This document shows, in pieces, positions 7,024 through 32,641 of a stretch of 64,000 nucleotides of DNA. This DNA is from Haloarcula regularis. GTDB lineage: Archaea > Halobacteriota > Halobacteria > Halobacteriales > Haloarculaceae. The notes beneath the pieces were generated by a model. That model ran no database searches and had not been told where the DNA came from. It saw only the letters and a program-made list of their open reading frames with translations. Where the stretch lies: NCBI RefSeq assembly GCF_029338315.1, contig NZ_CP119794.1, positions 992,001-1,056,000 of the forward strand, given 5' to 3'. The stretch's first letter is position 1, and every line of letters begins with the position of its first letter. A program made the translations under genes and the position numbers.

Positions 7024-7115
7024 CTTCTGCGACGAACGGACGTGAAGGAGCGAAGTGGGTACGAAGGATTCGAAGCAGAGCAGTCGCGCGCAACGAAGTG
7101 AGCACGTCTGTACGT

Positions 7116-8589: not shown

Positions 8590-8613
8590 TTCGCTACCCG
8601 CTGTGGAAAATAT

Positions 8614-9189
8614 ATGGGGCAGACACGCGCGAACCAACTGGGGCGCCGGGGGCTCCTCACGCTCGCGGCGATGGCGATCACGGCCGTCTGCGGGACGGCG
8701 TGGGTCGCGGTCCTCGTGACGCAGTCGGGGTGGCACGGCCTGGTCGAGCCGGTACTGAAAGTCTCGCTGGCGGTGACCGGTTTGCTGGTCGGGTTCGTCC
8801 CCTGGACGCTCCGGCGGGCGGAGACGGTTACGTGTACGAACGTCCTCCGGGTCTTTACCGTCGTCGCGGCCAGCGCCGTCGCGGTCGGCGTCTGGGCCAA
8901 CGGGGTCACGGCGCCGGCGAGTCTCGTCTGCTACGGGATGGTCGTGGTCGGCGCGGTGGCCGGCGGCGCCAGCGAGGCCATCGTCGCGAGCAAGGTGGGG
9001 CCGCTGGTGCTGACGTGGAACCTGATCTTGGTCCTGTACCTCACGGCACTGGTGGGCGTGGCGAGTCCGGCACTCGCCGGCGACCTGCCACGGCCCGTCG
9101 TCTCGGCCGTCGTCGCGACGCTGACCGTGGTCGGCTTCCACGGCGCGTTCGTCAGGGAACGGCAGGCGCTGGCAACGGAGGTGCAGTGA
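8614..9189 (+). CDS. Membrane protein of unknown function (about 6 spans)
   Basis: 191 residues, nearly all hydrophobic, with about six membrane helices and short Arg-containing loops. No signature of a known transporter is recognisable. ATTACTATAG at 8580-8589 and AAAATATATG just before the start are A/T-rich and may include its promoter. First of four same-strand membrane-protein genes (8614-11040) that run up to the Hsp70 gene; it may belong to that system, but this rests only on position. Confidence 0.7.
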   Translation: MGQTRANQLGRRGLLTLAAMAITAVCGTAWVAVLVTQSGWHGLVEPVLKVSLAVTGLLVGFVPWTLRRAETVTCTNVLRVFTVVAASAVAVGVWANGVTAPASLVCYGMVVVGAVAGGASEAIVASKVGPLVLTWNLILVLYLTALVGVASPALAGDLPRPVVSAVVATLTVVGFHGAFVRERQALATEVQ

Positions 9190-9192
9190 CCC

Positions 9193-10092
9193 GTGTTGGG
9201 ACTGATAAACGGGGCGATCTCGGAGACCAAGCGCTCGCTCTCGGTCGTCCTCAACGAACTGATCGTCCTGATCGCGCTGGGGATTTTCTTCGCCATCGTG
9301 AAAGTCGCCGTCGTCGTCACCGGCCTCGTCGTCTTGCTCGTCGGCTTCGTCGTTGAACTTGTTGCCGCGTCGCTGGGCGGGGTGCTGTACTCGCTGGGGA
9401 CCCTCCTTATGGTGTCCTCGGCCATGTTCTCGGGCATAGCCGCATTCGAGGCGTTCAGGACCGAACTCGCCCAGAGCGCCTCGGACCGGGAGTTCCTCCC
9501 GCCCAGACAGCGGATTCCCCAGAATCCGATCGTGCTCTTCCTCGTGCCGCTCGCCGTCGCCGGAGCCACGGCTGTCGCGGCGCCGGGACTCCTCTTTGAG
9601 ACCGGTACGCTCGCCTACGTCGTGACGGGCTACGTCTGTCTGAGCGTGCTCTACCGAGCCAACGCCGTCTGTGCCGGCTACGGGGACCGACAGTCGTCGT
9701 TCCTCTCGGATCCGCCGCCGTACCGGGGAGCGCTGCTAGAGTGGGGGGCGCCGCTGACGCAGATTGCCACCGGCATCGGCGTCGCGGTGGTCCTGCTGGG
9801 CGTCGAGGGCGCGCTGTTCGACTTCGTCTGGGCGGCCATCGCGCGACAGCTGGTCGCGTGGGCGCGGACGCTACCGCTGGTCTCCGGGGCGGCTGTAGAC
9901 GCGCTGTGGCTGGCCGGCGGCCTCGCCATCGTGGTGCTACTCTACTGGCTCGCGTACGCGTTTTTCCCCCAGTTGCGGACCGCCCGGCAGACGTTGGTGG
10001 AACTGGGCGCGCTCGGTCTCGCCCTGCTGGCGGCCCTCTACGTGCGAGTCCGAGCGTTCGCGGCCCACGTGTTCCTCCTGCACCCGCGGTGA
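9193..10092 (+). CDS. Multi-span membrane protein of unknown function
   Basis: 299 residues, GTG start 3 bases after the previous stop, so probably cotranscribed. About seven to eight hydrophobic segments; a hydrophilic loop near residues 90-110 (ASDREFLPPRQRIP) separates an N-terminal helical hairpin pair from the rest. No recognisable catalytic or transport motif. Likely acts together with its neighbours at 8614, 10214 and 10615, all membrane proteins. Confidence 0.7.
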   Translation: MLGLINGAISETKRSLSVVLNELIVLIALGIFFAIVKVAVVVTGLVVLLVGFVVELVAASLGGVLYSLGTLLMVSSAMFSGIAAFEAFRTELAQSASDREFLPPRQRIPQNPIVLFLVPLAVAGATAVAAPGLLFETGTLAYVVTGYVCLSVLYRANAVCAGYGDRQSSFLSDPPPYRGALLEWGAPLTQIATGIGVAVVLLGVEGALFDFVWAAIARQLVAWARTLPLVSGAAVDALWLAGGLAIVVLLYWLAYAFFPQLRTARQTLVELGALGLALLAALYVRVRAFAAHVFLLHPR

Positions 10093-10213
10093 CGGGGGTG
10101 GGTCGTCCGGGCGCCCCCGCCGGCACACGCCGACGAATTTTCCCGCTCCTGTCGGCGCTAAACCCGTGGCCTCGGCGTAACAATTAGATAACGGGTCCAC
10201 GAAACAAACGTCA

Positions 10214-10615
10214 ATGGCCGCGCTGGTTCAGGTGTTGGGGACGCTCGCGGTGCTGGTCACGCTCAGTGGCAGCTATCGACTGTTCTCGTTTTTCTTCGAC
10301 GACCCGCTGTTCAGCGGGCTGGTCGCCGCGGCGGTGACCGTCGCGTTCATGATCGCCTTCCCGGTGGTAACGACGGCGCTCGGCCTCGCGGTGCTTGTCG
10401 CCCCGCTCGTGGTCGCCTACCGGTACCGTGACCGCCTCCCGTCGACGCCGGCCCTGCCGGCCCTGCCGGACCTGTCGGGGCTGTTCGACGAGGGACTCGG
10501 TTCGTCGACCGGCGAGACGGGGGGACAGCGGTGTCCGAACTGCGGTGCGACCAACGACCAGCTGAACCGACACTGTGACGACTGCGGGGCGCTCCTCGTC
10601 GGGGGTGACGCCTGA
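10214..10615 (+). CDS. Membrane protein with C-terminal zinc ribbon
   Basis: 133 residues: an N-terminal half with three hydrophobic segments, a Pro/Leu-rich linker (about residues 78-95), then a zinc ribbon with two C-x2-C pairs (CPNCG and CDDCG) near the C-terminus. The layout matches small membrane-anchored zinc-ribbon proteins common in archaea. The stop overlaps the ATG of the next gene (TGATG), so the two are translationally coupled. Role unknown. Confidence 0.7.
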   Translation: MAALVQVLGTLAVLVTLSGSYRLFSFFFDDPLFSGLVAAAVTVAFMIAFPVVTTALGLAVLVAPLVVAYRYRDRLPSTPALPALPDLSGLFDEGLGSSTGETGGQRCPNCGATNDQLNRHCDDCGALLVGGDA

Positions 10616-11040
10616 TGCCCGGGCCGCTCCAGGTTGGCGGGGTGGGACCGACCTTCTTCAACCTGCTGGCGATCGCGATACTGCTGTTTTACGCGTACCA
10701 CCACGTCGAGTACCGGCGCGCCAGCGACTCGAGGGTCGAGCGGACGGCGAGACAGCGCGCGACGGCGTCGCTGATGGGCTTTTGCTTCTACGCCGTGCTG
10801 GTGGCGGCTTACGGCCCGTCGGGCACCTGGGTCGAGCCCATCGGGTGGGCGGTCAACTCCTACTTCCGGCGGGTGGCAGAGGGCCTGGTGACGACGGGCA
10901 CCACCGGGAGCGGCGGGTCCACGCTGCTCGCTGGCATCAAGGTACTCGGTCTGATGGCTTACGTGGTGCTGTTCTCGGCCCTGACCGTCTCGAACGGGGT
11001 GATAAAGCGCATCTGGAACGGTGTTTCCGACAGGATCTGA
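10615..11040 (+). CDS. Small multi-span membrane protein
   Basis: 141 residues with three to four hydrophobic helices and a positively charged loop (YRRASDSRVERTARQRA) after the first. Coupled to the upstream zinc-ribbon membrane protein by a TGATG overlap. Ends 82 bases before the Hsp70 gene, which has its own TATA box. No recognised family. Confidence 0.65.
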   Translation: MPGPLQVGGVGPTFFNLLAIAILLFYAYHHVEYRRASDSRVERTARQRATASLMGFCFYAVLVAAYGPSGTWVEPIGWAVNSYFRRVAEGLVTTGTTGSGGSTLLAGIKVLGLMAYVVLFSALTVSNGVIKRIWNGVSDRI

Positions 11041-11089
11041 CCTAAAAGATAGCCACCCCGTGGTTCAGATAATTTACCTGTTGCCAAAA

Positions 11090-11096
11090 TTTTAAG
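11090..11096 (+). promoter_or_regulatory. TATA-type promoter of the Hsp70 gene
   Basis: TTTTAAG inside the A/T-rich segment 11084-11096 lies 27-33 bases before the ATG at 11123. This suggests the Hsp70 gene can be transcribed independently of the membrane-protein genes upstream. Confidence 0.6.
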
Positions 11097-11122
11097 CGCG
11101 TTCTGTCAGAGTACATGGTGAG

Positions 11123-12660
11123 ATGGTTTTCAACATCGGGATCGACCTGGGCACGACGAACAGCGCGATGGCCGTCTACGACGACGAGTCGGAGTCGGTG
11201 CAGATGGTAGAGAACTTCAGCGGCGACCCGACGACGCCGTCGGTCGTCCAGGTACTCGAGGACGACGTCATCGTCGGCAAGGACGCGCTGGCGAACCAGG
11301 AGCGATACCCCGACCGGACGCTCGCGCGGACGAAACGCGACATGGGGAGCGACACGACCTACGAGATAGACGGGACCGAGTACCCACCCCAGCGCGTCGC
11401 CGGCTACATCCTCCAGAAGCTGAAAGAGGACGCCGAGGAGAGCGAGTTCGGCGACGACGTCGACGGGGCAGTCATCACGGTGCCGTACTACTTCGGCGGG
11501 TCCGCCCGGCAGGCCACGGAGGATGCCGGGACGAAGTTCGCCGACCTCAGCGTCTTCCGCCTGATGAACGAACCCACCGCGGCGTGTTACGCCTACGGCT
11601 ACCAAGAGGAGAGCGATGAGACGCTCTTCGTCTACGACCTGGGTGGTGGCACCTTCGACGCGACGCTCGTCGAGGTGACGGAGGACGAAATCGACGTCAT
11701 CGACTCCAACGGCGATGACGAACTCGGCGGGGAGAACTTCGACGACGAGCTCTACGAGTTCGCCCGCGAGGAGCTGATCGACCGGGGCGCCAGCGACCCC
11801 AACGAGTCGAAACACACCAAGGCGACGCTCCGAGAGAAGGTCAAAGAGACCAAAGAACAGCTCTCGGGCCGCGAGGACGCCGCCATCGCCTACCCTACCA
11901 GGCCGACGATTTCTACGAGGTCGAGCTGTCGCGGTCTGAGTTCCACGACCTGACCCAGGACTTAGTCGACAAGACGATCTCGCTCACCGAGGAGCTGTTC
12001 GATGACGGCGACTACGAGGTCGACGACATCGACAACGTCCTCCTGGTCGGCGGGAGCACCCGGATGCACCACGTCCAGGACGCCGTCGAGGAGTTCTTCG
12101 GGATGGAACCGTCGACGGACACGAATCCTGACCAGGTGGTCGCGAAGGGCGCAGCCCTCGAGGCGGCCCAGTACGACCCCGAGGGTGGGAACCTCCCGAC
12201 CCAGAGCATCACGGACATCCTCTCGCACTCGCTGGGCGTCGAGACCCACAACGACGACGGCCCGAACCAGTTCGACCCGATTCTCGAAAAAGGCGCGGAC
12301 CTCCCGAACCGAGAGACAAAACCCTACGGGAACCCCGACGAGACGGAGCAGAACCTCATCGTCAACGTCATCCAGGGCGAGGCGGACGAGGCCAACCACG
12401 AGGACAACGAGGAACTGGGCCGGTTCGTCCTCGAGGACGTCCCGGGCGATACGAAACTGAACGTCGAGTTCTACGTCAAAGAGGACGCGACCCTCGACGT
12501 GACCGCCGAGGCAGAGAACCGGGACATCGAGGGCGGCATCAACATCTCAGACGGTATCGGACTGACCCAGGAGGAGGCCGGGCGGATCAAAGAGGAGACC
12601 CAGGATTACACCTCGAAGGCCGTCCAGCGTCGCGAGGCGGACGCCGAGACCGACGACTGA
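11123..12660 (+). CDS. Lidless Hsp70 (DnaK-like) chaperone, one frameshift
   Basis: Hsp70-family ATPase. The nucleotide-binding domain (about residues 1-355) keeps IGIDLGTTNSAMAVY (phosphate 1), the NEPTAA segment, VYDLGGGTFDATLVE (phosphate 2) and LLVGGSTRM (adenosine). A beta substrate-binding domain follows (about 370-480). The protein stops at DGIGLTQEEAGRIKEET, where the helical lid begins, giving 512 residues against about 600-640 for DnaK. One base is missing in the C run at 11893-11895 (TACCCTACCAG); correcting it joins both parts. It is not the housekeeping dnaK, because no grpE or dnaJ of standard form adjoins. Alternative start codons nearby are out of frame. Confidence 0.88.
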
Positions 12661-12731
12661 AGCCCGGACGTTTCGACTCCCGAGAGGCGGCTCGTCGGCT
12701 CTCGCCGGCATCATCACGGATTTGACAAGCA

Positions 12732-14629
12732 ATGGATCTCAGTATTCGACTGGATACCGACCGAGCAGTGTTCAGAGAGAGGAGCGGGACGAGCGAAACG
12801 TTCGAAGTCGTCCCCTCGCGAATCGCGCCGACGACGGCGGGCGTCGTCGTGGGAGACCAGGCGGTCGCGCGGGGCGGCCAACCGGTTCTGGACCCGGGAG
12901 CGCTCGCCGTCCCCGACGACGCGGCGGCCGACAGTGCACCGGGCCAGCTCCCGGTCGGCGTCTTCCTGGCGGCATGCGTCGGGGAGTTCTGGGGTGACCT
13001 CGAGTCCGGTGGACCGAGCGTCGACGGTGAGCCGACTGACGGCGGCCAGGCCGACGGGAGTGGGCTGAGCGCCACCGTTTCCGTACCCGGGTGGCTCGAC
13101 GCCGACCAGCGGGCGGCCGTCCGGCGGGCGGCACGGTCCGCCCACCTTCCCGAGTGTCGGGTGGTCTGTCGGCCCACCCAGGTGGCCGCGGCGCTCGCGT
13201 CGGACCGGGACTCAGCGCTCCCTCGACCGGCCCCGGGCGCACTGGCGCTCGTCGTCGACGTCGGCGACAGGAGCGCCGACCTGGGCGTGTACGAGGCGAC
13301 GGAGACGGGCCTGCGCGCACGCCGCCGGACGAACGTCGAGGGCCTCGGGAGCGCCGACTGGAGCCGCGCCGTCGCGACCACGCTCCTGGCACAGGCCGGC
13401 GAGGCCCGCGACGTGACCGTCGAGTACACGGACGGCGCGCTCGCCGAGCTCTCGGCGGCCGTCCGCGAGGCGGTCGGCGGCGACTCGACCCTCCCGGTGT
13501 CGGTCGAGCTGGAACTGGCCGACGGCGTCACGCTCACCGCGGGCGACCACACGCTCTCGGAGTCGCTCGAACTGGACCGGGAGATAACGACCGGACTCCT
13601 GCACGCGGCCCTCGAGGACTACGCCGCGGACCTGGCGGCCGCGGCCACGGACGTCCTCGCGGACGCAGACGTCACCCCGGACGACCTGTCGACGGCGGTG
13701 CTCGCCGGGGACGGCGCGGACCTCGAACCGTTGCGGAACGCGCTCGCCGGCCACGTCGGCGAGGCGACGACGGTCGTCCAGTACCCGCTGGGCGGGGCCG
13801 AGGACCCGGCGCCACCGGCCGACACGGACACGGTGACGGACACGCTCGACGGAGCCGTCCGCGTGGTCGCGATGGACGGCGAGGACCTGGCGGCGACGCC
13901 GACCGGCGGTTCGCTGGCCGGGGTCGACACGGTCAGGCAGGTGTCGGTCGCCACCCGGACCCCCGAGGGACAGCACGGGCGCCTCGACGTCGAGGTCAGC
14001 GACCCGGCGACCGGGGAGCCACGGGTCAGGGCGTCGTTCACCGTGTCCGGGTTCCCGGCGGTCGCCGGCGACGAGCAGGCGGCGACGACGCTCGGGGCCT
14101 CGGTAACCGGCGATCCGCCGGTGAGCGCCGACGACATCGAACTCGAGGTCATCGAATCGACGAGTGAGACAGCCCCGACCGTCGACCGCGAGACTTACGA
14201 CGACGGCACCTGGCTCCAGTTTGCCGACGAGGGCGAGTTCACGCCCCTCCCGGACAGGGCACGGACGCCGATGGCAACCTACGCGCGACAGCGTGACGAC
14301 CGGGGCCCGGACCGCCCCGACCCGAAGGCGGTCATCGAGGCGATTCACAGCGTCAGGACGAACCTCTGGCAGTGGGGTATCGTCAAAGAGAACCCCCTGG
14401 ACCCGGACAACGTCGAGATAATCCTCCGGGAACTCGACCAGAGCTCGAACAGCAGCGCATCGAGTTTTTCGTCCCGGAGGTCGGGGCCGAGGCCGGGCCG
14501 CGGCGTCACTACATCAGGGAACAGCGGGCGGCCGACGAACCCGAGGGGACGATCCTCGAGGTGCTCGAACCCGGCGTGAAGGTCGACGGGGTCATCACCA
14601 AGAAGGCCATTGTCGCCATCGCCGGCTAG
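12732..14629 (+). CDS. Degenerate Hsp70 fused to a GrpE-like domain, one frameshift
   Basis: 632 residues after correcting a one-base loss near 14441 (GACCAGAGCTC, expected GG). Residues 1-330 follow Hsp70 topology: TVSVPGWLDADQRAAVRRAA and CRPTQVAAALAS match the VP.Y..D.QR and NEPTAAALA segments, and VVDVGDRSADLGVYEA sits at phosphate 2. However, the DLGTTNS loop is lost (MDLSIRLDTDRAVF) and GGGTFD is not kept, so ATP hydrolysis is unlikely. A beta-rich middle follows. The last 60 residues (IEFFVPEVG, then EGTILEVLEPG and KKAIVAIAG) match the GrpE C-terminal beta domain. It probably acts as a nucleotide-exchange or co-chaperone partner for the adjacent Hsp70. Confidence 0.75.
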
Positions 14630-14645
14630 CCCCGGCCGCAGGGCC

Positions 14646-16157
14646 TCACTCCTCGCCGGCCCGCTCGTAGGCTTTCGACTGCCGGAGGTCCTCGACCCGG
14701 TCCAGCACCTCCCGTGCCAGCTGTTGCTGACTGTTCTCGCTGAACTTCGCGAGGTCGGCCCTGAGGTCATCAAGGATCTCCTCGTACGTGGCGGCAAACC
14801 CCTGCTGGATCTCTTCGACGAGGACCGTCTCGACGACGTGCTGGGCTTCCGCATCACTCACCTCGTCGAGGTCCATGTTCTCGATGGCCCGGGCGACCTC
14901 GTCGTCGTCGCCGCCGACGACGCTCGTCACCTGCTTGAACCGGTCGAACCGCCCGCCGCTCTCCGAGGCCTCCAGGTCGGCGTCCCCCTCGGCGAGCTCC
15001 AGGAACAGCTCCGCCGACTCCTTGGTGGACTCCCGGAGCGCCGTCTCGAGTTCCGACTGGCGGCGCTCGAGGGTGCTGTCGAGGTTCTCGAACAGCGTGT
15101 CGGCTGACTTGATCCTCTTCGCCCGGGACCGTTTCAGGTCGTCGAGCTCGTCCCGGTAGCGCGGGAGGTTCGAGACGGAGAGGGCCCCTTCCTTGTCGAG
15201 CGACTCGATGTGGGACACGAGGTCGAAGTCCCCGAGTTCGACCCGCCCGACCGGGTCGCCGATGACGACGTCGAACTTGTCCGTCTCCTTTCGCTGGTGG
15301 GAGACACACCGGAGCGCCCGGAGCGTGCCGTCGACGGCGTAGGCGAACCGGTCGACCTGGGTGAGCGACGCGTACATCTGGAAGCCCTGGCGGCGGTACT
15401 GCTCCCAGAACTGCGCGAGGTACTCGCTGTCCGGCGGCGTGACGCCCGAGGCCCGGCCGCCCGCGGTGGCTGCCGTCGGGCGGTCCCCCTGGGGCCCAGA
15501 GTCCGGCGAAGGCGACTCCGCCGAGTCGGTGCCGGGGTCGTCGGGTGAGGTATCGTCGCCAGTCGGGTCACCAGGAGCGCCGTCGTCGGGATTCAGGGTG
15601 TCGATGTCGACGAACTCGTCGTCGGCACCGGACCCGCTGTCGGATTCGTCCGGCGGCTGCTCGGGCCGGTCAGATCGGGACGTGATATCGCCCTCGAACC
15701 GCGTCGTTCGGGCGTCGTCTCGCTGGCGAACGCCGTTGGACCCGGGTCCGATGCGGGAATCGAGCCGCCGGACGTCGACGGTGGCCGACCCGTCGACGTC
15801 GGCGGTGAACGAGCGGGTGCGTGCGTCCCTGAGTTCGTTGACGACGTCTTTGATACTCGCCTCGCTGACTGCCTCCACCGGGGCCCAGAACACGTCGAAG
15901 TACGCCATCGTCGTGTTCCGACTCAGGTCGTCCTCGCGCTTTCCCTCGAAGACGACGACCAGGTGGTCGCCGATCGTCTCGAAGAAGTAGCCCGGCTCTC
16001 TGTTCAGTGCGCTGTCGCCGTCGTTGAGCAGTCTCGTCAGCGGGTCGGTACGGCTCGATTCCTCGGGCGTCGGAACGAACGTCGGTTCCGCGCCACGCTG
16101 GTAGTCGTACGTGTCGAATATCGCGTGGTCGAAGGTGAGGTTCAATCTCTGAGCCAT
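14646..16157 (-). CDS. Coiled-coil protein, partner of the overlapping GTPase-like gene
   Basis: 503 residues, no membrane segment or signal. Three parts are visible: an alpha/beta N-terminal domain (residues 1-135), a Pro/Ser/Asp-rich acidic linker (about 150-245), and a C-terminal helical region (about 245-503) with long coiled-coil heptads. A segment with LRALRCVSHQRKETDKFDVV precedes the coil. I recognise no family. Its ATG lies inside the end of the GTPase-like gene (about 16-base overlap), so the two products are made together. A GTPase-associated adaptor or scaffold is the likely role. Convergent with the Hsp70-GrpE gene, 16 bases apart. Confidence 0.75.
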   Translation of the reverse strand: MAQRLNLTFDHAIFDTYDYQRGAEPTFVPTPEESSRTDPLTRLLNDGDSALNREPGYFFETIGDHLVVVFEGKREDDLSRNTTMAYFDVFWAPVEAVSEASIKDVVNELRDARTRSFTADVDGSATVDVRRLDSRIGPGSNGVRQRDDARTTRFEGDITSRSDRPEQPPDESDSGSGADDEFVDIDTLNPDDGAPGDPTGDDTSPDDPGTDSAESPSPDSGPQGDRPTAATAGGRASGVTPPDSEYLAQFWEQYRRQGFQMYASLTQVDRFAYAVDGTLRALRCVSHQRKETDKFDVVIGDPVGRVELGDFDLVSHIESLDKEGALSVSNLPRYRDELDDLKRSRAKRIKSADTLFENLDSTLERRQSELETALRESTKESAELFLELAEGDADLEASESGGRFDRFKQVTSVVGGDDDEVARAIENMDLDEVSDAEAQHVVETVLVEEIQQGFAATYEEILDDLRADLAKFSENSQQQLAREVLDRVEDLRQSKAYERAGEE

Positions 16158-17025
16158 GTCACCACCTCGTCGAATCCTTTGGTGACGAACCCGCCATCGT
16201 TGTCTCTTGCCAGTTTGTCCGATTTCGGATTCGTCGGGTCCGCCGGCGGGACGGCCGTGCTGAAGAAGGCGATGCGCTCGTTTTGCTCGACGTGGTCGAG
16301 CAGGTTCTGTACCTTGGGGCGTCCCCGAGCCTCAGCTTGTCGTCGAGGTGGGCATCCAGACCCCGATCGTACGTCCGCGGGGAGAACGACGCCTTGCTCT
16401 TCATGTCCGGGTCCGACGGGTCGTAATCGAGCAGGTCGACGGCCGTCGGGACGAGCGCCGTCTTGACCTTCTGTCCCGAGACGGCCTCGAGGACGTCCGA
16501 ATCGAAGGTCGGTTCCTCGTCCCGGATGGTCATCTTGTGGAAATTGACCAGGAACAGTATCATCGAGGCCTGCGAGTAGTAGTGCTTGAAGATCGTCTCC
16601 CAGTCCCCGATGTCGAGCGCCTCGTCCCCGCCGATCTTCGACCTGACCGACCGGAACTCCGACTCCACCCGCGACTCGTCTATCGCGTCGTTTTTCACCT
16701 CGTCCCAGATGTTCGAGAGGACGATGTCGATCTGCTCGCCGGGGATGTCCACGAACTGGAAGTCGATGTCGGGGACGAGACTGCTCCCCTGGCTGAGCGT
16801 CAGTTCGACCACGTATCCCTCGGTGGTCTGGTCGGGATAGACGCCCCGGGTGTTCATCCGCTTGATGACCCCGTCGTAGAAGTCCTCCTCGACGTTACCC
16901 TCCTTCTTGCGGTACGTGACGTTGATATCGTCGGCCCGGTGTGCGTGCCGGTAGAGGCCGCCGATGAACGTCGACTTCGATCCTGCCTGTCCCGCCACGA
17001 CCATCACGTTGTTGTTCTTTGGCAT
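16142..17025 (-). CDS. P-loop GTPase-like protein, one frameshift
   Basis: 294 residues after restoring one base near 16321. The N-terminus reads NNVMVVAGQAGSKSTFIGGL: a Walker A-like loop in which Ser replaces the last Gly (G-S-K-S-T). VDIPGE fits a Walker B/switch II D-x-P-G-E, and TALVPTAVDLLDYD is a plausible base-specificity loop. The pattern resembles the double-GTPase (DO-GTPase) group often placed beside vWA and adaptor proteins; I would rate that family name as tentative. The corrected C-terminus (VQNLLDHVEQ to VTWLRD) ends with a TGA inside the start of the coiled-coil gene. Confidence 0.7.
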
Positions 17026-17046
17026 CGTTTTTCCAGGTTCGGTGAT

Positions 17047-17619
17047 CTACTGTATCCACGGGAGCGCTTCGCTGTACGACGATGCGAGTTCGCGCCGGAG
17101 GATGCGGACGTACCCGACGACGACCACCGTCATCAACAGCGCGGCGATGAGAAACGGCGTGTCCCCGTTTGCGAGAAACGAGATCACGGTATACCCCATG
17201 CCGAACAGGTACGTCTCGATGCCCATGAGGCCAGCGAGCGCGATCGCGTGGAAGTTCGTCGGCTGGTTGAACCGGTAGTGGAGCATGCCGCCGACGAAGA
17301 CCAGCACCGCGAGCAGGCCATAGGAGACGGCGTCGAGCAGTTCGATCCCCGGAACGGGCACCAGCACGCCCAGGAGCATGACCAGCGAGAGTCCCGTCGT
17401 CATGACGACACCGGAGGCCGTCCGGGAGCGCCACCGGAGGAGCAACAGCGAACCCAGCAAGACGAAGCTGAGCGCGTACTGCATCCGGAGCACTTCGCCT
17501 GGCAGCGCCCCGACGGTCTGTGCCCTGAACAGCACCGACCCGACGCCGAGAATCCCGGCCCCACCGTACACCAGGAGCACGTCCTGTTTCTCACCCTTGG
17601 ATAACGCAGACCAGCGCAT
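17047..17619 (-). CDS. Six-span membrane protein
   Basis: 190 residues with about six evenly spaced hydrophobic helices and short loops, N-terminus basic/polar (MRWSALSKGEKQ). No known transporter signature. It is transcribed toward the GTPase-like gene, 21 bases away, and so probably heads a three-gene operon (membrane protein, GTPase-like, coiled-coil). This suggests a membrane platform for the GTPase. Divergent from the vWA gene, with 279 bases between. Confidence 0.75.
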   Translation of the reverse strand: MRWSALSKGEKQDVLLVYGGAGILGVGSVLFRAQTVGALPGEVLRMQYALSFVLLGSLLLLRWRSRTASGVVMTTGLSLVMLLGVLVPVPGIELLDAVSYGLLAVLVFVGGMLHYRFNQPTNFHAIALAGLMGIETYLFGMGYTVISFLANGDTPFLIAALLMTVVVVGYVRILRRELASSYSEALPWIQ

Positions 17620-17857
17620 CTATCGTATCCATGCAGCATTTCATAGAATAATCTTGCGGTGCTACAGCAAATACCAATGCCCGAGAGGGGGGAAACGAGC
17701 AACACCCCCCGTCGCAGCACTCTGTCGTACCTATTGGTCGCCGGCACGATGGCCGAGTCAGGTGGCGTTGGCAACCGGCCACGGAACCGTCGTCCCGGAG
17801 GTTGCCCCGGGGAACACCTTCGTGCGGGGGGCGCTGTCGTTAAATCTACCCCCCAAG

Positions 17858-17883
17858 CCGTGATAAGATATATGATATCACGG
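17858..17883. promoter_or_regulatory. Inverted repeat enclosing the TATA box of the vWA gene
   Basis: CCGTGATA-(AGATATATGA)-TATCACGG: perfect 8-base arms flank a TATA-like core centred about 28 bases upstream of the vWA ATG at 17899. A protein bound to this palindrome would block TBP. It lies in the divergent region shared with the 17047-17619 operon. The rest of 17620-17857 shows nothing clear. Confidence 0.55.
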
Positions 17884-17898
17884 ATCGCAGGCATACGT

Positions 17899-19108
17899 AT
17901 GCCAGTCGAGCTGTCAGCGTATCCGAAGAAGAACCCGATCGAGGTGGGCGGCGACCGGTTCACCGGCGCCATCGACTTCGACGTCGAACCGCCGGACGAC
18001 CCGCTCCCGGTCCACGTCGTCTTCTGCATCGACAAGAGCGGGTCGATGTCGGGCCGTGACATCGAAGTCGCGAAGGAGGGGCTGATTCAGGCGACAGAGG
18101 GCCTCCGGCACCAGGACGTCTTCGGCGTCGTGGCCTTCTCGAGCAGCGCCGAGGTGCTCGTTTCACCCACCCAGGGCGACAACGCGAGCGACAGTCACGA
18201 GGCGATCTCGAACCTGGATGCCGGGCGGGACGAGTATCATGAACGGCCTCGCCCGGTCGAAGGAACTGCTCGGCCGGATGGCCGAGTCGGGGTCGCTCGG
18301 TGGCCTCCTCTCGCTTGGCAGCGGGGCGAAACCCGTCGAGTGGGTCGTGCTCATCACCGACGGCGGGAGCTCCATCGACGAGCGCCGACTCGACACCGAG
18401 TTCGACGAGAGCGGCATCACCGTCCAGAGTGCCGGCATCCGCAACTACCGCCAGGACGTGATCAAGACCGTCGCGGAGCGCACCCAGGGCGAGTGGGCCG
18501 ACGTGGGCAACCCACAGAAGCTGGGCCGCTTTTTCGACCGGAAGCTCTCGGAGGCCCGCGGGGTCGGGGCGGTGAACCCGGACCTCCACCTCTCGCCGGT
18601 CCGGTTCGCCGACATCAAGGCCGTCTACCACACCCACGGCGACCAGCAGAGTACGATGGACCCCGAGTGGGAGGGCCAGGACTGCACCGTCAGCATGGAC
18701 GACATGATAGCGGGCAAGGAGTCGAAGGTCCGCCTCGACCTCTTCGTCGACGGCGAGGCCAGCCTGGAGGAACAGAAGGTACTCGACGCGACCCTCGAGA
18801 CGGCGACCCAGACCGTCAGCGACGAGATGACTGTCGAGATCGCGGCCGGCGTCGTCGTCGAGGAGGCGTCCGACGACGAGGGTGCCCTCGACGACGTCGC
18901 CATCAGCGACGTGATGGAGACGGCCCTGGAGGACGGCCCGGACCAGGCCGAGACGAAGATCGGTCAGTGGGAGCGCGAGGACGAGGTGACCGAGTCCACG
19001 GTGGCCAAGATGGAGGACGTGATCGACGACATGAAACAGACCGGCGACGAGAAGGAGGCGAAAGACGACGTCTCGCGGGTCCTCAGCGAGTGGGACGACG
19101 ACGCCTGA
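17899..19108 (+). CDS. von Willebrand factor A domain protein, one frameshift
   Basis: 402 residues after removing one extra G in the run at 18223-18225. The N-terminal vWA domain (about residues 35-215) has a complete metal-ion-dependent adhesion site: Asp45, Ser47 and Ser49 in DKSGSM, the Thr of GGTSIM, and the Asp of ITDGGSS. A beta-rich domain and an acidic helical tail follow. No signal peptide or membrane span, so it is cytosolic and probably a protein-binding adaptor. The stop abuts the stop of the convergent J-Ig protein gene with no gap. Its TATA box lies inside a palindrome. Confidence 0.85.
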
Positions 19109-20655
19109 CTACTGTAACAGAATCCGTTGTTCGGCCTGTTCTTTCACCGAGAGCGAGGGCTTGTCGGCGGTCAGCGTCTCGATGCCGGTCCGGTCCATCA
19201 GGTCGACGGTGGCGACCCCGTCCTCGCCGGTCTCCCAGGTCTCGGGCCGCCGGGCGGAGTGGATGACGGCGCCCGACACCGGCGTCCCGTTCTCGTCGAC
19301 GACCTTCACGCTGACCTGGTCGCCCGGCGAGGCCACCTGGGGGACGTCCGCCATCGACAGCTCCGGCTGGTGTTCCGAGACGGTGAACGTGGTCTCGACG
19401 GGGCTGAACTCGAACCGGTCCGACGACTTCTCGGCTGTCAACTCCAGGTCGTCCTCGCGCTGTATCGTCAGGGACACCCACCCGTCGGCGTCGGTCGTCG
19501 CCTGGTGCCCGTGGTTGGTCGTGACCGTGGCGTCGGCGACCCCCGTGTCGCTCGTGTCGGTGATCTGTATCTCCACCTCGCCGCCCTCCTCGAAGGTCCC
19601 GCGCGTCTGCCCGACGGCCAGCGACGCGTCCCCCCGGTGGACGTGGAGGTCGGCCGTCTGCTCGACGTAGTTCACGTCCGCCGCGTCGGTCTGTTTCGAC
19701 ACCGTCACCTCGAAGGACCCGGGGTGCTGGAAGGTCAGCGTCGTTTCGCCGTCGCCGTCCGTGCTCCCGGTCGGGCCGCCCGCCGCCTCGACCACGGCGT
19801 CTCGCACCCCAGTGTCCGCGTCGTCGACGACCCTGAACGTGGTCTCCTCGCCCACCCGGATCTGGTTGGTCGCCACCTGCAGACGCAGCGGAATCTGTTC
19901 CTCGACGACGTCGACCTCCGCGGTGGCCGGGGCGTAGGTCACCGAGATCGTGTCGTTCGCGTTCGCCTGGATAATCCGCGTGCCCGTCGAGTCAAACTGG
20001 AGTTCGACGTAGCCGTCGGCGTCGGTGCGTCCGACCTGATCGCCGTCGGCGAGCACCGTGATCGCCTCGACGCCGGTGCCCGAGCTGTCGGTCACCCGGA
20101 GGCGCTCGCGCTGGCGCACCGCCAGCTCCGTGGGCATGCCGACGATGTCGAGGTCGATGTGTCGGGGCTGGACGTCCAGCGTCGCAGAATCATCGTGGTA
20201 GTTCATGCCGCCGCTGGTCCGGACCTCGACGTTCCCCGCGGTGTCGAACGCCATCGACGCCGTCCCGTTGCTGCCGGTCACGGTGCTGTGGCCGCGATCG
20301 GATTCGACGTCGATGCCCGACTCCGGGCCGTCCGAGGACGTGACCTTGAACTCGACCGTGTCGTCGACCGTCGGTTTCGGCGCCCCGACGTCGAGCGAGA
20401 GGGTGGTCGGTTCGGGGTGGCCCTCGGCAGGGTGGTTGCCCTCGATCCAGCTGATGGCGTCCTTGATCTCGAGGACGGCGTCCGTCGCTTCCTTGTAGCC
20501 CTCCTCGTCGCCGGCGCCCTTTCGCTGTTTGATCTCCAGGTCCTTCTTGCTCTTGAGCGTGTTCGCGGCGTCCAGGATCTCCTCGCGGGTCATCGTCCGC
20601 TCGACCCCAGTTTCTCGTACGGGTCGTCCCCCTCAATCGGCCGAGCCTCGGTCAT
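19109..20655 (-). CDS. J-like domain fused to Ig-like repeats, one frameshift
   Basis: The readable frame from 20593 encodes about five Ig-like beta repeats of about 85 residues (each with D..G...V.......G.T..DG...L.F pattern). Upstream, an ATG at 20655 opens a frame that joins it if one G is restored in the run at 20605-20608. The restored N-terminus reads DPYEKLGVERTMTREEILDA, followed by an A-x-x-L-K-S-K-K-D helix and KEATDAVLEIKDA. This matches helices I-III of a DnaJ domain with the HPD loop replaced by KKD. No signal peptide, so cytosolic. It gives 515 residues. A TATA-like TAAATTTTTT sits at about 20683-20692. Confidence 0.7.
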
Positions 20656-20738
20656 TAAGGAATCGTTCGCCGACGGCAGGTAAAAAATTTAGCTCGTCGC
20701 CGGCGAACCCCCGCGGTGAGAGATCGCCGCCGCGCCCG

Positions 20739-20969
20739 TCAGGCCCTCGCGAGCGTCCCCACGTGCCCACACGCCGGACACTTGGCCTTGATCTTGTCAG
20801 ATCTGATGAGATGCCCCTCCTTTTTCAGTAACCCGTTGCGCTTCAGGCAGTCGGTGTGGACGATGCAGTTCTTGCAGTTCGTACAGTGAGCGGCGTTCTC
20901 GCCGCTCACCGCCTTCCCATCACAGAAGTAACACGCCCCCGTGGGGTTCGAGGAACCGAACAGTCCCAT
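20739..20969 (-). CDS. Small RING-like zinc protein
   Basis: 76 residues with four metal-binding pairs: CYFC (about 13-16), HCTNC with KNC, VHTDC, and CPAC near the C-terminus. The Cys/His order resembles a cross-brace or treble-clef fold. It could be a small adaptor; a ubiquitin-ligase-like role is not implied. Separated by 83 bases from the start of the J-Ig gene and transcribed in the same direction, toward it. An ATAAATATTT at 20993-21002 is well placed as its TATA box. Confidence 0.7.
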   Translation of the reverse strand: MGLFGSSNPTGACYFCDGKAVSGENAAHCTNCKNCIVHTDCLKRNGLLKKEGHLIRSDKIKAKCPACGHVGTLARA

Positions 20970-21012
20970 GTACTTACATATCGGCCGTCGATGATAAATA
21001 TTTGGGCGCTCG

Positions 21013-21036
21013 GCGCTGATTTAACCCAATCAGCGC
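21013..21036. promoter_or_regulatory. Perfect inverted repeat between divergent genes
   Basis: GCGCTGATT-TAACCC-AATCAGCGC, 9-base arms with a 6-base loop, lies between the promoter of the zinc protein and that of the pentapeptide channel (AAAATAAAAG at about 21079-21088). A weaker CCGTG/CACGG repeat follows near 21055-21069. A candidate operator for one or both genes. Confidence 0.5.
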
Positions 21037-21121
21037 GGATTCTTCCCGTCGGTGCCGTGGAATTCACGGTCGCCGGCCCAAAATAAAAGACGCTCGCCGC
21101 TGTGTCTCTCACACGACCATC

Positions 21122-24100
21122 ATGACAGAAGCGTGTCGGTATCGGGACGACGAGACGGGCCTGTCCGACGGGTGGTGCTGTCACCGGGAGCCCTACGAGG
21201 GGACAGAGTACTGTCTCTTTCACCTGCCCAGCGAGGAACGGGCGGCACGCGGTGTCGACGACGCTGCGGTGACGGAGGCACTGCGTGACGTCGCGCGCCA
21301 GCGCGGCCGAGAGGCAAAGCAACTGGTCGGGGCCAACCTGGGATCGGTGTCGCTCGACCGCGAGTTGCTCGACCCGGCGGACAAGTACCCCCTCGACCTC
21401 CGGGGCGCGTCCATCGACGGGACGGTGGCGATTCACCGGTCGGAGGTCGACCTGCCCGTCGACCTGCGGGGGGCGACGGTCGGCGCCCTCGAGTGGACCG
21501 AGTCGACCTTCCAGGACCCGGTCGACCTCTCGGGGTGTGTCGTCCGCGACGCCGTCACGCTCACGGGGACAGTGTTCGAGAGCGACGTGGACTTCGTCGA
21601 GGGGACGTTCCGCGGAGACGTCGACTTCAGAGAAGCCCGCTTCCACGGGGACACGTGCCTCCGGGACACGCGGTTCGCGGCGCCCGCCACGTTCGACGGC
21701 GTCGAGTTCAGGGGCGACGCGAACCTGCTTGACGACGACGTCTGTTTCGAGCGCGCCGAGTTCGAGGCCGACGCCTCGTTCGTGTCGGCCGGCTTCCGGT
21801 ACGCCGACTTCGTCGACTGCCGGTTCCACGGCGACGCGACGTTCACCGAGGCGGACTTCTCGGGTGACGCGGAGTTCATCGGGGCCGTCTTCGACGGACC
21901 GACGGCGTTCCGCGGGGCCGAGTTCGTCGGCGGCGCCAACGTACGCATGGACGATGCCGACTTCTCGGACGCGCTGTTTCGCGACGAGGCCGACTTCTCG
22001 GCGGCCGAGTTCTCCCGCGGCAACTTCGAGGGCGCGACCTTCGAGACGGCGGCCAGCTTCGAAGACGTCACGTTCAGCGAGGAAGCGCTGTTCGGCGGGG
22101 TCCGCTTCGGTGACGCCGTCGAGTTCGTCGAGGCGCGTTTCTACGACGACGCGGACTTCGCCGACGTGGCGGTGGCCGGACCCTGTCGGTTCCTCGGTGC
22201 CGAGTTCCACGGCGGGGACAACGTCAAGTCGTCGGACGCGACATTCGAGGATGCCCGGTTCGGGGCCCACGCGAACTTCCGCCGGACCGCGTTCAGGGAC
22301 GCGTTCTTTACGGGCGCCACGTTCGACACCGCGGACTTCCACGCCGCGACGTTCGACCGTGACACCTCCTTCGCCGAGGCGACCTTCGAGGGACGCGCCG
22401 AGTTCGACGAGGGGCGTTTCGAGGGCGACACGACGTTCGAGGCCGCCGGCTTCGAGGCCGACGTGACGCTACGGGGCGCCGAGTTCCGGGGCCGGGACAA
22501 CGTCGACGACGACGACGTGACCTTCGCGGACACCGTCTTCGAGGCGGCCGTCGACTTCTCGCTTTCGGAGTTTGGCTACGCCAACTTCCGGGCGATAACC
22601 GCCGAGGCCGACGCTGTCTTCGACGACGCCGCGTTCCGCGACGAGGTACACTTCGAGGAGGCACAGTTCCAAGCGGCCGCCTTCGACGAGGCCCGCTTCG
22701 CCGACGACTCGAACTTCCGCGGGACGGAGTTCATAGGCGAGGCGGCCTTCCGCGGCGTCGAGTTCCACGGCGGGGACAACGTCGACGACGACGACCTCTC
22801 GTTCGTCGGCGGCGCGTTCCACGGCCCGGTCGAGTTCCTCGAGGCGACGTTCCAGTACAGCGACTTCTCCGGCGTCACCTTCGGCGCGAGGGCGTCCTTC
22901 GAGGGGGCCTCCTTCGACGACGACGTGGCGTTCGTCGAGGCCGCCTTCGAGGGGGCGGCCACTTTCGACGAGACGTCTTTCGACGGCGAGGCCGACTTCT
23001 CTGCGGCCAGTTTCGACGGGCGGGCGCTGTTCGACGAGGGGCGGTTCACCGACGACGCCTCGTTTCAGGACGCCTCCTTCGAGGGGCTGACGGAGTTCCG
23101 CGGCGTGGAGTTCCACGGCGGCGACAACATCCGCGACGACGACGTCACCTACGCCGGGGCGACGTTCACCGGTGACGTGGACTTCGAGCGCGCGGAGTTC
23201 GAGGCCGCGACCTACACCGGGGCGACGTTCGCCCGCGAGGTCAACTTCGAGGCCGCGGCGTTCAACCGCGAGGCCGTCTTCGATGGGGCTGCCTTCGAGG
23301 GCGACACCGCCTTCGTCGAGGCGCGGTTCACCGACGACGCCGACTTCGAGGGGTGTACGTTCGGCGGCGACGTCTCGTTCCTCGGCGTCGAGTTCGAGGG
23401 GGGCTACCACGAGGACGACGACGCCGCGTTCTCCGGGGCCCGCTTCCGTGGCGAGGCCGACTTCAGCGAGGTCGAGTTCCGCCAGGCCGGATTCCGCGAT
23501 ACCCGTTTCGAGGACGCGGTCACGTTCCACCAGGCGGAGTTCGGGCGGACCCACTGCGAGGGCGCCCGGTTCGACGGCCCCGTCGACGTCTCGTTCACCC
23601 GGTTCCTCGAACCGGCCACCTTCGAGGACGCGACGTTCGCCGCGCCCGTCGACGCCGACGAGATCCGCTTCGAGAGCGACGCCAGTTTCGCTGGCGCGGC
23701 CTTCGAGGCGGCGGTGTCGTTCCGGGGCACCGAGTTTACCGGCGGGGCCCACACCGTCGACGACGCGGACTTCGAGGGGGCGACCTTCGGCGGGAGCGCC
23801 GACTTCAAGATGGCCGAATTCCGCTTTGCCAACTTCATGAGCGTCGCGTTCGGCGGGAACGCCCTCTTCGAGCGGACGCTGTTCGAGGACAAGGGCACCT
23901 TCCGTAACGCCACGTTCGACGGGTCGGCCGTCTTCTCGCGGACCCGGTTCGTCGACGAGGCCGACTTCTCGAGCTGTCGGTTCGGCGACGAGGCCCACTT
24001 CGACGAGCTCCGGTTCGAGAAGGACACGACCTTCGCCGACGCGACCTTTTCGGGTGACGCGACGTTCAGGGCGGCGGAGTTCGAGGGGAGCGCGAACATG

Positions 24101-25116
24101 CACAACGACGACGCGAGCTTCGAGGGGGCGACCTTCCACCGGGAGGCGGACTTCGACAAGGCGACGTTCCTGTACGCGAACTTCCGGGCGACGACGTTCG
24201 GCGAGTGTGGCCGGTTCACCGGCGTGGAGTTTCCCACTCCGTCGTCTTCCGCCCGGAACCCGTCGAGGCCGAGACGCTCGTCGATCTCAAGGACGCGACG
24301 GTCGAGGGCGGCCGGCTCGGCCAACCGGAGGACGGCGACGTCTTCTACGACTGCACCCACAGCGAGATCCACGAGGTCGTCCTCGACGACGCAAACTGTC
24401 GCCACGGACTGTTCAACCACTTCCTGTTCTGTAACACCGACTTCGAGGGGTTCGATTTCACCGCCCACAAGGAGTACCTGGCGCGCAACAACTGGGAGAT
24501 ACACACCTTCGCCGTCGGCGACCGCCTGCGGGCGGAGATGGACGACCGGTGGGGTGAACTCTCCCCGGCGACCCTCGAGAACACCTACCTGAAGGCAAAG
24601 AACTGCGCCAGCGACTTCGGCGACCGCAAGGCCGCGGCCGAGTTTTTCATCAAGGAGATGGTCTACCGGCGCCGGAAGAACTGGGACGCCGCCTTCACCC
24701 GAGAGGCCGACGTCTCGCTTCGCAACCGCGCGAAGGCGCTCGGGAAGTGGTTCGGGAACAACGTGTTACACCAGACGTGTGGCTACGGCGAGCGACTCTG
24801 GCGCGTCGTCTACGTCTCCTCTGTCGCCGTCGCGCTCTGGGGACTCATGTACGCGACGGTGAGCAAGGGGACCACCGAGAGCACGGGACTCGCCGCCCAG
24901 GACTCGAGCGGCCTCCTCTGGCTCCTGTCACCGGAGGGGATCATCACGCTCGGCGAGAACATGTACTTCAGCATGGTGACGTTCACCACGCTCGGGTACG
25001 GCGACATCCAGCCCGTGGGCGCGACGGCCCGGACGCTGGCGGGACTGGAGGCGTTCTTCGGCGCGCTCCTGGTCGCGCTCGTCGTGTTCGTGCTGGGTCG
25101 ACGGGTCGCCTGGTGA
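21122..25116 (+). CDS. Giant pentapeptide-repeat protein with C-terminal K+ channel, one frameshift
   Basis: 1331 residues after restoring one C in the run at 24233-24235. Layout: an N-terminal Cys/His cluster (Cys5, Cys19/20, Cys31, His34); about 75-1035, a continuous array of A(D/N)F-x-x pentapeptides arranged in long blocks often punctuated by GGDNV-type insertions; a polar linker; then a two-helix ion-channel module (TM1 about 1225, TM2 about 1306-1326). Its pore reads FTTLGYGD, the K+ selectivity signature of Ion_trans_2 channels. The pentapeptides should form a cytosolic right-handed beta helix over 200 coils-equivalents long, perhaps a sensor or docking arm gating the channel. Confidence 0.85.
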
Positions 25117-25134
25117 CACACGGGACGTCGGGCC

Positions 25135-25664
25135 TTACTCTGGTTCTTCGTACCCTTCCTCGCCCGCGGTGAAGATGTTGAACGAGGTGTCCTGCTGGAT
25201 GCGGTGGATGAGATAGAAGCCGGCGATGACGATGAGCAAGAGCAGGCCATAGGAGAGCGCACTGAGCAACGCGTCCGTCGGCGTCGCGTACTTCGCCGTC
25301 CGGAAACTGATTATCTTCCGGGACATCGCGATGATGCCGACGTTGAGGACGATAGGGAGGATGTTGAGGTCCTCGACGTACGCGATGACCGTCCGGTATA
25401 TCTCGACGATTATCATCAACAGGAGCGCGGTGTCGATGGCTTGATCACCACTTCGGGGTCGGTGAACGTCCCCTCGACGATCATCAGGTACATCTTCAAC
25501 CCCAGATCGTACACACCGATGGCGAACAGCCCCACCATGATGAACGCCGTCAGGAGCTCGAGGACGTCCATCAGGAGCTCGGAACTGGACCCGATGCGCA
25601 TCAGGACGTCCTCGTAAGAGAACCGATCCGCGCCGACCCCGAACTGCGTATTGTCTTCTGACAT
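25135..25664 (-). CDS. PsiE-like four-span membrane protein, one frameshift
   Basis: 176 residues after restoring one base near 25439-25441. Four hydrophobic helices, with VLELLTAFIMVGLFAIGVYD in the first and an IDTALLLMIIVEIYRTVIAY segment in the third; this pattern matches the phosphate-starvation-inducible PsiE-like membrane family, whose biochemical role is unknown. An acidic C-terminal tail faces the cytosol. Convergent with the pentapeptide K+ channel gene, 18 bases apart. It may be the last gene of the chaperone/GTPase/channel cluster. Confidence 0.7.
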
Positions 25665-25977
25665 TTTCGGGTTGGTTTTTCGCAACGACTGTAATAGACT
25701 TTTCCCGGGGGCTAGTGAGTCGAACGCCGGCCGCCCGGGAGTCGGAGGTATCCTGGTAGCCACATGATTGCCGGGTATACGCACGAAAAGCCGAGTTCTG
25801 TATGTCGAGAGGGGGGTTCCGGTACTCATACAGACCGTTTGGCGTCTGTATTTGCGAATTCAGCCACAAATATCCGAGACGAGCGTGTCTGGATTTATTT
25901 TGGATAGGGAACACACAGATATGTCAGTACTCCTGAAGTAGACGAACGAACCGTTCGAACACGCCCGGCCGGCGGTC
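25665..25977. other. Intergenic region, no gene seen
   Basis: About 310 bases between the starts and ends of two minus-strand genes. Contains a run of A/T-rich DNA near 25675-25705 that may carry the promoter of the PsiE-like gene, and a further A/T-rich stretch at about 25850-25930. No credible coding region. It marks a change in gene content from the chaperone cluster to the sugar-acid genes. Confidence 0.5.
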
Positions 25978-29703: not shown

Positions 29704-29882
29704 GCGGGCGGAGTATCTGGCGGTCGATATATAAATATCGGGGCTCGTCAGTCGTACGTGTCGAAGGGTGTCACACCGGTACAACCGCTGGGCGTGCATT
29801 GAGAGGGGCTGCCGGGAGGACTGCGAACGGGCCCCCGGTCGTCACCGACGGGAACGAGCCGCGAGCGAGGAGTACCCGACGC

Positions 29883-32618: not shown

Positions 32619-32641
32619 ACCGCTGTTCCCAGTATGGGCAT

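What the first reader, a model, noticed from the sequence alone, without database searches (positions are those of the whole stretch)
11123..25664. Candidate new chaperone-GTPase-vWA-channel system
Within 14.5 kb lie a lidless Hsp70, a degenerate Hsp70 fused to a GrpE-like domain, an Ig-repeat protein carrying a J-like domain without HPD, a P-loop GTPase-like protein with an overlapping coiled-coil partner, a six-span protein, a vWA adaptor with complete MIDAS, a RING-like zinc protein, a huge pentapeptide K+ channel and a PsiE-like membrane protein. Hsp70, nucleotide-exchange and J-type modules each appear in altered form. That suggests a dedicated chaperone cycle controlling assembly of GTPase/vWA complexes and perhaps membrane permeability, as in conflict or stress systems. 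I know of related GTPase-vWA systems, but not this exact set.
Basis: partly seen in the sequence, partly recalled or inferred. Interest (0 to 1): 0.93.

Follow-up and report, generated by a model that had tools for sequence, protein, structure and literature searches.

The report
Haloarchaeal Hsp70-GTPase switch gene cluster
Seven neighbouring genes, found together in five sequenced salt-loving archaea, encode an Hsp70 chaperone, altered versions of its usual helpers, and a predicted GTPase with its partners; together they likely form a chaperone-controlled molecular switch, perhaps a remote relative of proposed bacterial conflict systems.

Summary
The conserved unit is seven genes, 11123-20655: lidless Hsp70, motif-less Hsp70 fused to a GrpE beta-domain, J-like (no HPD) beta-sandwich repeat protein, YcjX-like GTPase, its coiled-coil partner, a membrane protein and a vWA protein. 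All seven lie together in five loci (two Haloarcula-type, three Halorubrum genomes), with two sub-blocks in conserved order; GTPase and partner hit the same 4 of 391 haloarchaeal genomes. The pentapeptide K+ channel and RING-like gene are not kept even in the sister genome. Five of the seven window genes carry frameshifts; the sister genome has open copies.

The kind is not wholly new. Kaur et al. 2020 described DO-GTPase/GAP1-N2 systems with HSP70, GrpE, a second truncated HSP70 and DnaJ-FNIII proteins, and I found a recognisable one in another archaeon of the phylum. The haloarchaeal version differs: no recognisable GAP1, one GTPase, a pseudo-Hsp70-GrpE fusion, different repeats, vWA, and in Halorubrum a TerY-C zinc protein. 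Best reading: a divergent GTPase switch set by a dedicated Hsp70 machine at the membrane, in defence or envelope stress. New variant of a known kind; function untested.

The parts
11123..12660 (+). Hsp70 without lid: nucleotide-binding domain plus beta substrate domain; ATPase motifs kept; frame broken near 11.89 kb
   Evidence: PF00012 hits on both pieces; open 510-aa copy in G332; alignment with the genome's own DnaK; frame break
12732..14629 (+). Pseudo-Hsp70 (phosphate-binding motifs lost) fused to a C-terminal GrpE beta-domain; frame broken near 14.44 kb, before the GrpE part
   Evidence: PF00012 4.9e-9; PF01025 6.5e-7, 1.7e-8 and 1.4e-7 in relatives; motif loss by reading the alignment; end read
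14646..16157 (-). GTPase partner: N-terminal alpha/beta domain (weakly longin/roadblock/TagF-like in a low-confidence model), low-complexity linker, long C-terminal helices; open
   Evidence: found in the same 4 of 391 genomes as the GTPase
16142..17025 (-). YcjX-like / DO-GTPase-like GTPase (P-loop AGQxGSKST, DIPGE, TAVD); frame broken near 16.32 kb; low end placed by alignment with G332
   Evidence: 94% identical open protein P0001
17047..17619 (-). Membrane protein with several hydrophobic stretches, just upstream of the GTPase gene; the two genes overlap by 13 bp in G110
17872..19108 (+). vWA protein with complete MIDAS motif (DxSxS, T, D); frame broken near 18.22 kb; start placed by alignment with G332
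   Evidence: PF13519 6.8e-14 on the open G332 copy; sequences; frame break
19109..20655 (-). J-like domain without HPD followed by beta-sandwich repeats (CarboxypepD_reg / Big_1 type); frame broken near 20.61 kb, inside the J part; start placed by alignment with G332
20739..20969 (-). 76-aa Cys-rich (RING-like) ORF upstream of the J-repeat gene; not found in G332 or the Halorubrum loci; not part of the core
21122..25116 (+). Pentapeptide-repeat protein with C-terminal ion channel in an overlapping frame; reduced to a remnant in G332; not part of the core
25135..25914 (-). PsiE-like membrane protein spread over two frames; not part of the core
   Evidence: PF06146 1.3e-7
8614..11040 (+). Four small hydrophobic proteins, one with a C-terminal zinc-ribbon-like end (below cut-off); kept next to the core in G332; no significant match in L010 or L020; membership undecided

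Best explanation
The seven genes at 11123-20655 form a conserved cluster that likely works as a GTPase switch at the membrane whose assembly is set by a dedicated Hsp70 machine, probably a remote haloarchaeal counterpart of the bacterial DO-GTPase/GAP1-N2 systems of the HSP70 theme. Shown here: gene content, conserved linkage, loss of the phosphate-binding motifs in the second Hsp70, absence of HPD in the J-like domain, and a predicted structure of the GTPase that fits YcjX best. Inferred: the GTPase is held at the membrane by the membrane protein encoded beside it and is controlled by the coiled-coil partner, whose N-terminal domain may be longin/roadblock-like. The lidless Hsp70, which keeps its ATPase motifs, would act as a fast, loosely holding chaperone; the pseudo-Hsp70-GrpE protein would be its built-in exchange factor and the J-like repeat protein its targeting arm, without the usual ATPase trigger. 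The vWA protein would be the peptide-binding adaptor that links the assembly to its target. The system is probably off until a stress or invader signal and then assembles at the membrane, in defence against viruses or in envelope stress.
Against: No firm sequence link to the reference system: hhalign with three DO-GTPases gave 2% probability, none of 8 partner proteins hits a GAP1 model, and the profiles match the G585 GAP1 and GTPases only at chance level or not at all; DO-GTPase1 scores stay below Pfam's cut-off. The partner model is poor (pLDDT 56.7) and its best Foldseek E is 0.075. None of 10 proteins hits PADLOC. No effector domain recognised. No viral or plasmid copy found, though the viral scans rest on short exact patterns. 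Five of seven genes are frameshifted in the window itself. The partner's variation lies largely in its linker and C-terminal part, so it is not clear evidence of an arms race. No functional data.
Confidence: 0.55

Rival explanations
1. The cluster is a membrane-stress or cell-polarity module of the YcjX or MglA/MglB kind, with a chaperone set for its own complex, and has nothing to do with viruses.
For: Best solved GTPase match is the stress protein YcjX; PMC11237479 places a DO-GTPase beside psp operons as a predicted membrane-stress protein (passages); the partner's weak matches include MglB, Ragulator, GATOR1 and FLCN complexes and longin domains; a membrane protein is encoded beside the GTPase.
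Against: Found in only 4 of 391 haloarchaeal genomes, unlike a general stress module; the reference systems were argued to be anti-invader systems (PMC7159879, section 35 part 1 read).
Confidence: 0.3
2. Two unrelated modules sit side by side: an Hsp70/pseudo-Hsp70-GrpE chaperone pair, and a GTPase/partner/membrane-protein switch; the vWA and J-repeat genes belong to one of them.
For: The chaperone pair stands without GTPase or partner in G010, between metabolic genes; a lone GTPase copy lies beside adenylosuccinate synthetase in G110; gene order differs between Haloarcula and Halorubrum.
Against: All five loci that have both GTPase and partner also have the chaperone set, J-repeat and vWA genes, in two genera whose copies are only 22-49% identical in protein.
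Confidence: 0.15
3. One reading: the chaperone-GTPase-vWA set controls the pentapeptide K+ channel and the PsiE-like protein.
For: The genes are adjacent in the window, and a PsiE-like piece is still there in G332.
Against: In G332 the channel is a remnant and the RING-like ORF is not found while all seven core genes stay open; no channel homologue in L010 or L020.
Confidence: 0.05
4. In this strain the cluster is decaying and does nothing.
For: Five of seven genes have frame breaks.
Against: Gaps of frame-breaking size are also common in a control stretch, 29754-42610: 21, nine of them bunched at 36.65-36.75 kb, against nine in 8530-20740 (I did not check which control gaps lie in genes). The completeness estimate is 90.12 while most genomes of the genus stand at 99-100, which fits sequencing or assembly errors. 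Codon-position bias is kept.
Confidence: 0.2

Closest known systems
DO-GTPase/GAP1-N2 systems, HSP70 theme (Kaur et al. 2020, eLife, PMC7159879)
   Same: GTPase with Glu after Walker B, partner gene directly downstream, HSP70, GrpE, a second HSP70 without working substrate domain, J-type domain fused to beta-sandwich repeats, membrane component
   Different: No recognisable GAP1-N2/M; one GTPase, without zinc ribbons; pseudo-Hsp70 and GrpE in one protein; J-like domain without HPD; CarboxypepD_reg/Big_1-type repeats instead of FNIII; stand-alone vWA; every named relative found is haloarchaeal
   Same: Hsp70 ending after the beta domain, GrpE-like gene (weak), repeat protein, GTPase and partner in one run
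   Different: Two DO-GTPase2 proteins, GAP1 with both domains (1.4e-12, 2e-14), fn3 repeats; no pseudo-Hsp70 or vWA among the seven ORFs scanned
YcjX (stress GTPase)
   Different: 11% identity in the aligned part; longer protein (458 residues in the entry); its genetic setting was not compared here
TerY vWA / TerY-C of tellurium-resistance systems
   Same: vWA protein plus, in Halorubrum, a protein with part of a TerY_C metal-binding domain in the same cluster
   Different: Zinc domain is a separate gene at the other end of the cluster; no kinase or phosphatase among the core genes

Membership tests
DO-GTPase family | TRAFAC-type GTPase fold | tested here: met
DO-GTPase family | Conserved Glu in the Walker B region (feature from PMC7159879 section 27) | tested here: met
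   DxPGE in 16 of 16 members
DO-GTPase family | Score above the Pfam cut-off for DO-GTPase1 or DO-GTPase2 | tested here: not met
   DO-GTPase1 in 5 of 16 members, best 8.1e-4; DO-GTPase2 in 1 of 16 (0.033) (which prints no bits for them); the L009 copy scores 13 of 27 bits for DO-GTPase1; hhalign 2%
GAP1-N2 systems, HSP70 theme | GAP1 protein with GAP1-N2 and GAP1-M domains | tested here: not met
   0 of 8 partner proteins hit a GAP1 model; no match to the G585 GAP1
GAP1-N2 systems, HSP70 theme | Partner gene directly downstream of the GTPase | tested here: met
   Adjacent or overlapping in all five loci
GAP1-N2 systems, HSP70 theme | HSP70 and GrpE genes, a subset with a second HSP70 lacking the substrate domain | tested here: met
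   Hsp70 plus pseudo-Hsp70-GrpE in all five loci; altered form, as a fusion
GAP1-N2 systems, HSP70 theme | FNIII-repeat protein fused to a DnaJ domain | tested here: inconclusive
   J-like domain below cut-off, without HPD, on repeats of other families
Hsp70 | PF00012 match and intact phosphate-binding motifs | tested here: met
   1.8e-106 for the G332 copy; DLGTTNS, DLGGGTFD, GGSTR kept
DnaJ / J-domain proteins | HPD motif | tested here: not met
   Absent in 5 of 5 N-terminal J-like sequences from three loci
GrpE | PF01025 match | tested here: met
   Above cut-off in the two Halorubrum proteins and the G010 protein scanned (29.6, 34.8, 31.7 of 25.8 bits), covering only model positions 89-165 of 165; below it in G332 (16.7 bits); L121 was not scanned
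Longin/roadblock GTPase regulators | Fold of the partner's N-terminal domain | tested here: inconclusive
Known anti-phage systems in PADLOC-DB | Match to a model | tested here: not met
   0 of 10 proteins at E up to 1
TerY phosphorylation triad (composition recalled) | vWA with TerY-C plus kinase and PP2C phosphatase | tested here: inconclusive
   vWA and a separate TerY_C protein in Halorubrum loci; kinase and phosphatase not looked for beyond the core genes

The most novel reading that the evidence does not exclude
A separate, haloarchaeal class of chaperone-driven GTPase immunity: a dead Hsp70 welded to GrpE works as a dedicated exchange factor (in the manner of Hsp110) for a lidless Hsp70 whose J-type targeting arm has lost its ATPase trigger, and together they load a vWA/TerY-C adaptor onto a YcjX-like GTPase governed by a longin-type regulator, so that the cell's response is gated by two nucleotide clocks.
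Probability: 0.25. Interest if true: 0.8.

Novelty: new variant of a known kind. Interest (0 to 1): 0.6.

Why it matters
Hsp70 cycles are thought to need a J-protein HPD trigger and usually a lid (general knowledge). A conserved gene set in which trigger and lid are gone and the exchange factor is fused to a motif-less Hsp70 is a natural test of what is indispensable in that cycle. If the kinship holds, it also extends the proposed HSP70/DO-GTPase conflict systems to haloarchaea, where Halorubrum and Haloarcula strains make genetics and virus tests practical.

Tried and rejected
Nine-gene reading with the K+ channel: rejected, since the channel is a remnant and the RING-like ORF not found in G332. 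Counterpart of the RING-like ORF in Halorubrum: only chance-level tblastn hits in L009, L010, L011 and L020; the TerY_C protein there is a different zinc protein. Spread on plasmids or viruses: no hit; the G585 GAP1 also had no plasmid match. A genome-contig scan with the first GTPase alignment found nothing; a second with the Halorubrum-type alignment gave two loci, so the pattern scans miss relatives. Direct sequence link to DO-GTPase2 and GAP1: none. My reading that the G585 repeat protein starts with a J-like segment is by eye only; a profile of the haloarchaeal J parts did not find it, so I do not use it. Solved structures by sequence for GTPase and partner: only chance-level hits. The membrane protein touches Ceramidase weakly (0.0012, below cut-off); not used. 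The first alignment of the membrane protein used a wrong frame in L020 and was replaced. Empty-site test: the left flank with tRNA-Val is in 32 of 32 genus genomes and the right flank matches in 31 of 32, but in the nine other genomes whose best rows I compared by eye the two lie far apart or on different contigs, so no clean empty site was found. A profile search with the pseudo-Hsp70-GrpE alignment at E 1e-15 rang 354 of 391 genomes, the listed rows being mostly ordinary DnaK- or GrpE-like stretches; two candidates per genome were scored; the only further fusion among the rows printed is in G010, and not all rows were printed. G378 has one weak partial GTPase hit (9.7e-4), not followed up; G095 one of 3.2e-4, not among the hits of the profile. 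G487, with a DO-GTPase2 over the cut-off, was fetched but its neighbours were not annotated.

Not in print: searches of the held library for haloarchaea with Hsp70/GrpE/von Willebrand/GTPase, for DO-GTPase and GAP1 terms (3 papers) and for Hsp70-GrpE fusion terms (2 papers, unrelated by their listing) showed no description of this haloarchaeal version; subscription papers are mostly not held.
Full report
What is there. The window lies at 992001-1056000 of a 3.5-Mb contig of a genome that also has an ordinary full-length DnaK elsewhere. Between 11123 and 20655 are a lidless Hsp70, a degenerate Hsp70 with a GrpE end, a coiled-coil partner, a P-loop GTPase, a membrane protein, a vWA protein and a J-like/beta-sandwich repeat protein. 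Five of the seven are frameshifted in the window (near 11.89, 14.44, 16.32, 18.22 and 20.61 kb); the partner and membrane genes are open. A sister genome, G332, is about 94% identical in DNA over 8530-20740 and has all seven open. Mismatches between the two genomes favour third codon positions (fraction 0.41 to 0.75 in the seven core genes), so the genes were under protein-level selection until recently. Gaps of frame-breaking size outside the cluster (not checked gene by gene) and the low completeness estimate make sequencing error the likelier cause, but that is not proven.

Conservation. Profile search for the GTPase returns 16 protein clusters from 5.8 billion proteins; the three with organism names are haloarchaeal. 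With an 11-row profile 4 of 391 class genomes have it: the window's genome, G332, G110 and G260; in the genus 2 of 32, the window's own included, in the genus of G110 3 of 52, one of them marginal. The partner, searched independently, hits the same 4 of 391. G110 carries a full cluster (L010, L011) and a second, lone GTPase (L009); G260 a full cluster except that the vWA gene is cut by the contig end (L020 = L120); a fifth full cluster is in Halorubrum sp. Atlit-26R (L121). Two metagenome contigs, by their lengths (4616 and 4441), seem to encode both GTPase and partner. In Halorubrum the order is vWA (opposite strand), two J-repeat genes, Hsp70, pseudo-Hsp70-GrpE, membrane protein, GTPase, partner, TerY_C protein; in G110 a TnpB-like gene sits between pseudo-Hsp70-GrpE and the membrane gene. 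In Haloarcula the blocks Hsp70/pseudo-Hsp70-GrpE and membrane/GTPase/partner are kept, but oriented differently. The membrane protein is the weakest equation: 22% in the alignment and no significant tblastn hit between the genera.

Rates. Between Halorubrum loci L010 and L121 the partner is 70% identical, the 337-aa J-repeat protein 80%, pseudo-Hsp70-GrpE 81%, membrane protein 90%, the 623-aa J-repeat protein 91%, GTPase 94%, vWA 96% and Hsp70 99.6%. The partner's variation is highest around its linker (44-62% in blocks 101-250) but extends through its C-terminal part (58-80% in blocks from 301 on), while its first 100 residues are 84-94%. A sensing role of the variable parts is possible, not shown.

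What is known. Kaur et al. 2020 (PMC7159879; passages, sections 27 and 29 and the first part of 35 read) described DO-GTPase systems with GAP1; about 14% of the GAP1-N2 neighbourhoods have HSP70 and GrpE, a subset a second HSP70 lacking the peptide-binding domain, and FNIII proteins typically fused to DnaJ or TPR. They mention a few archaea, without names in the parts that I read. In the phylum I found one genome, G585, of 246 with a GAP1-N2 domain over the cut-off; its run of genes has two DO-GTPase2 proteins (one below the cut-off, 5.6e-4), a GrpE-like gene (weak, NCBIfam 0.022), Hsp70, an fn3 repeat protein and GAP1. The haloarchaeal set thus resembles that theme in its parts list. By sequence it is not a member: GAP1 is not found and the GTPase shows only weak Pfam DO-GTPase matches. 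A structure search ties the GTPase to YcjX, which PMC11237479 cites for a DO-GTPase protein (passages).

Verdict. A real, conserved and rare haloarchaeal cluster of seven genes (with the TerY_C gene, eight families in Halorubrum), a new variant of the chaperone/GTPase switch kind. The fusion of a motif-less Hsp70 with GrpE was not found in print in my search. Mechanism and purpose are inference: I put 0.55 on a chaperone-set GTPase switch related to the DO-GTPase/HSP70 systems, and see defence and envelope stress as open alternatives.

Noticed in passing
L010:6915-7523, L020:11111-11707, L121:12679-13257: A Cys-rich protein with part of a TerY_C metal-binding domain follows the partner gene in all three Halorubrum loci.
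   Followed up: partly
L118:12835-16269 (G010): Lidless Hsp70 plus pseudo-Hsp70-GrpE pair alone in another haloarchaeal family, between a 2-hydroxyacid dehydrogenase gene and a dihydroxy-acid dehydratase gene.
   Followed up: partly
L036:429-11478 (G585): A recognisable archaeal GAP1-N2/DO-GTPase2/Hsp70/fn3 gene run.
   Followed up: partly
window 21122-25116: Very large pentapeptide-repeat protein (25 Pentapeptide_3 stretches) overlapping, in another frame, an ORF with an ion channel domain; nearly gone in the sister genome.
   Followed up: no
window 6949-7024: tRNA-Val(CAC) next to the variable stretch; copies of 31-33 bp of its 3' end lie nearby in G276 and G411, as after integration at this tRNA; none is listed around the cluster in the window's genome.
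   Followed up: no
window 8614-11040: Four consecutive small hydrophobic proteins, one with a zinc-ribbon-like end, just upstream of the Hsp70 gene and kept in G332.
   Followed up: no
P0031: A relative of the partner protein with a long hydrophobic insert between its N-terminal and C-terminal parts.
   Followed up: no
window 28937-29799: A short-chain dehydrogenase-like gene also appears split between two frames, by reading, in keeping with frequent frame breaks in this assembly.
   Followed up: no
L010 against L121 and L120: Hsp70 is 99.6% identical between G110 and Atlit-26R but 88% between G110 and G260, while the GTPase is 94-95% in both, as if pieces of the cluster had been exchanged.
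   Followed up: no
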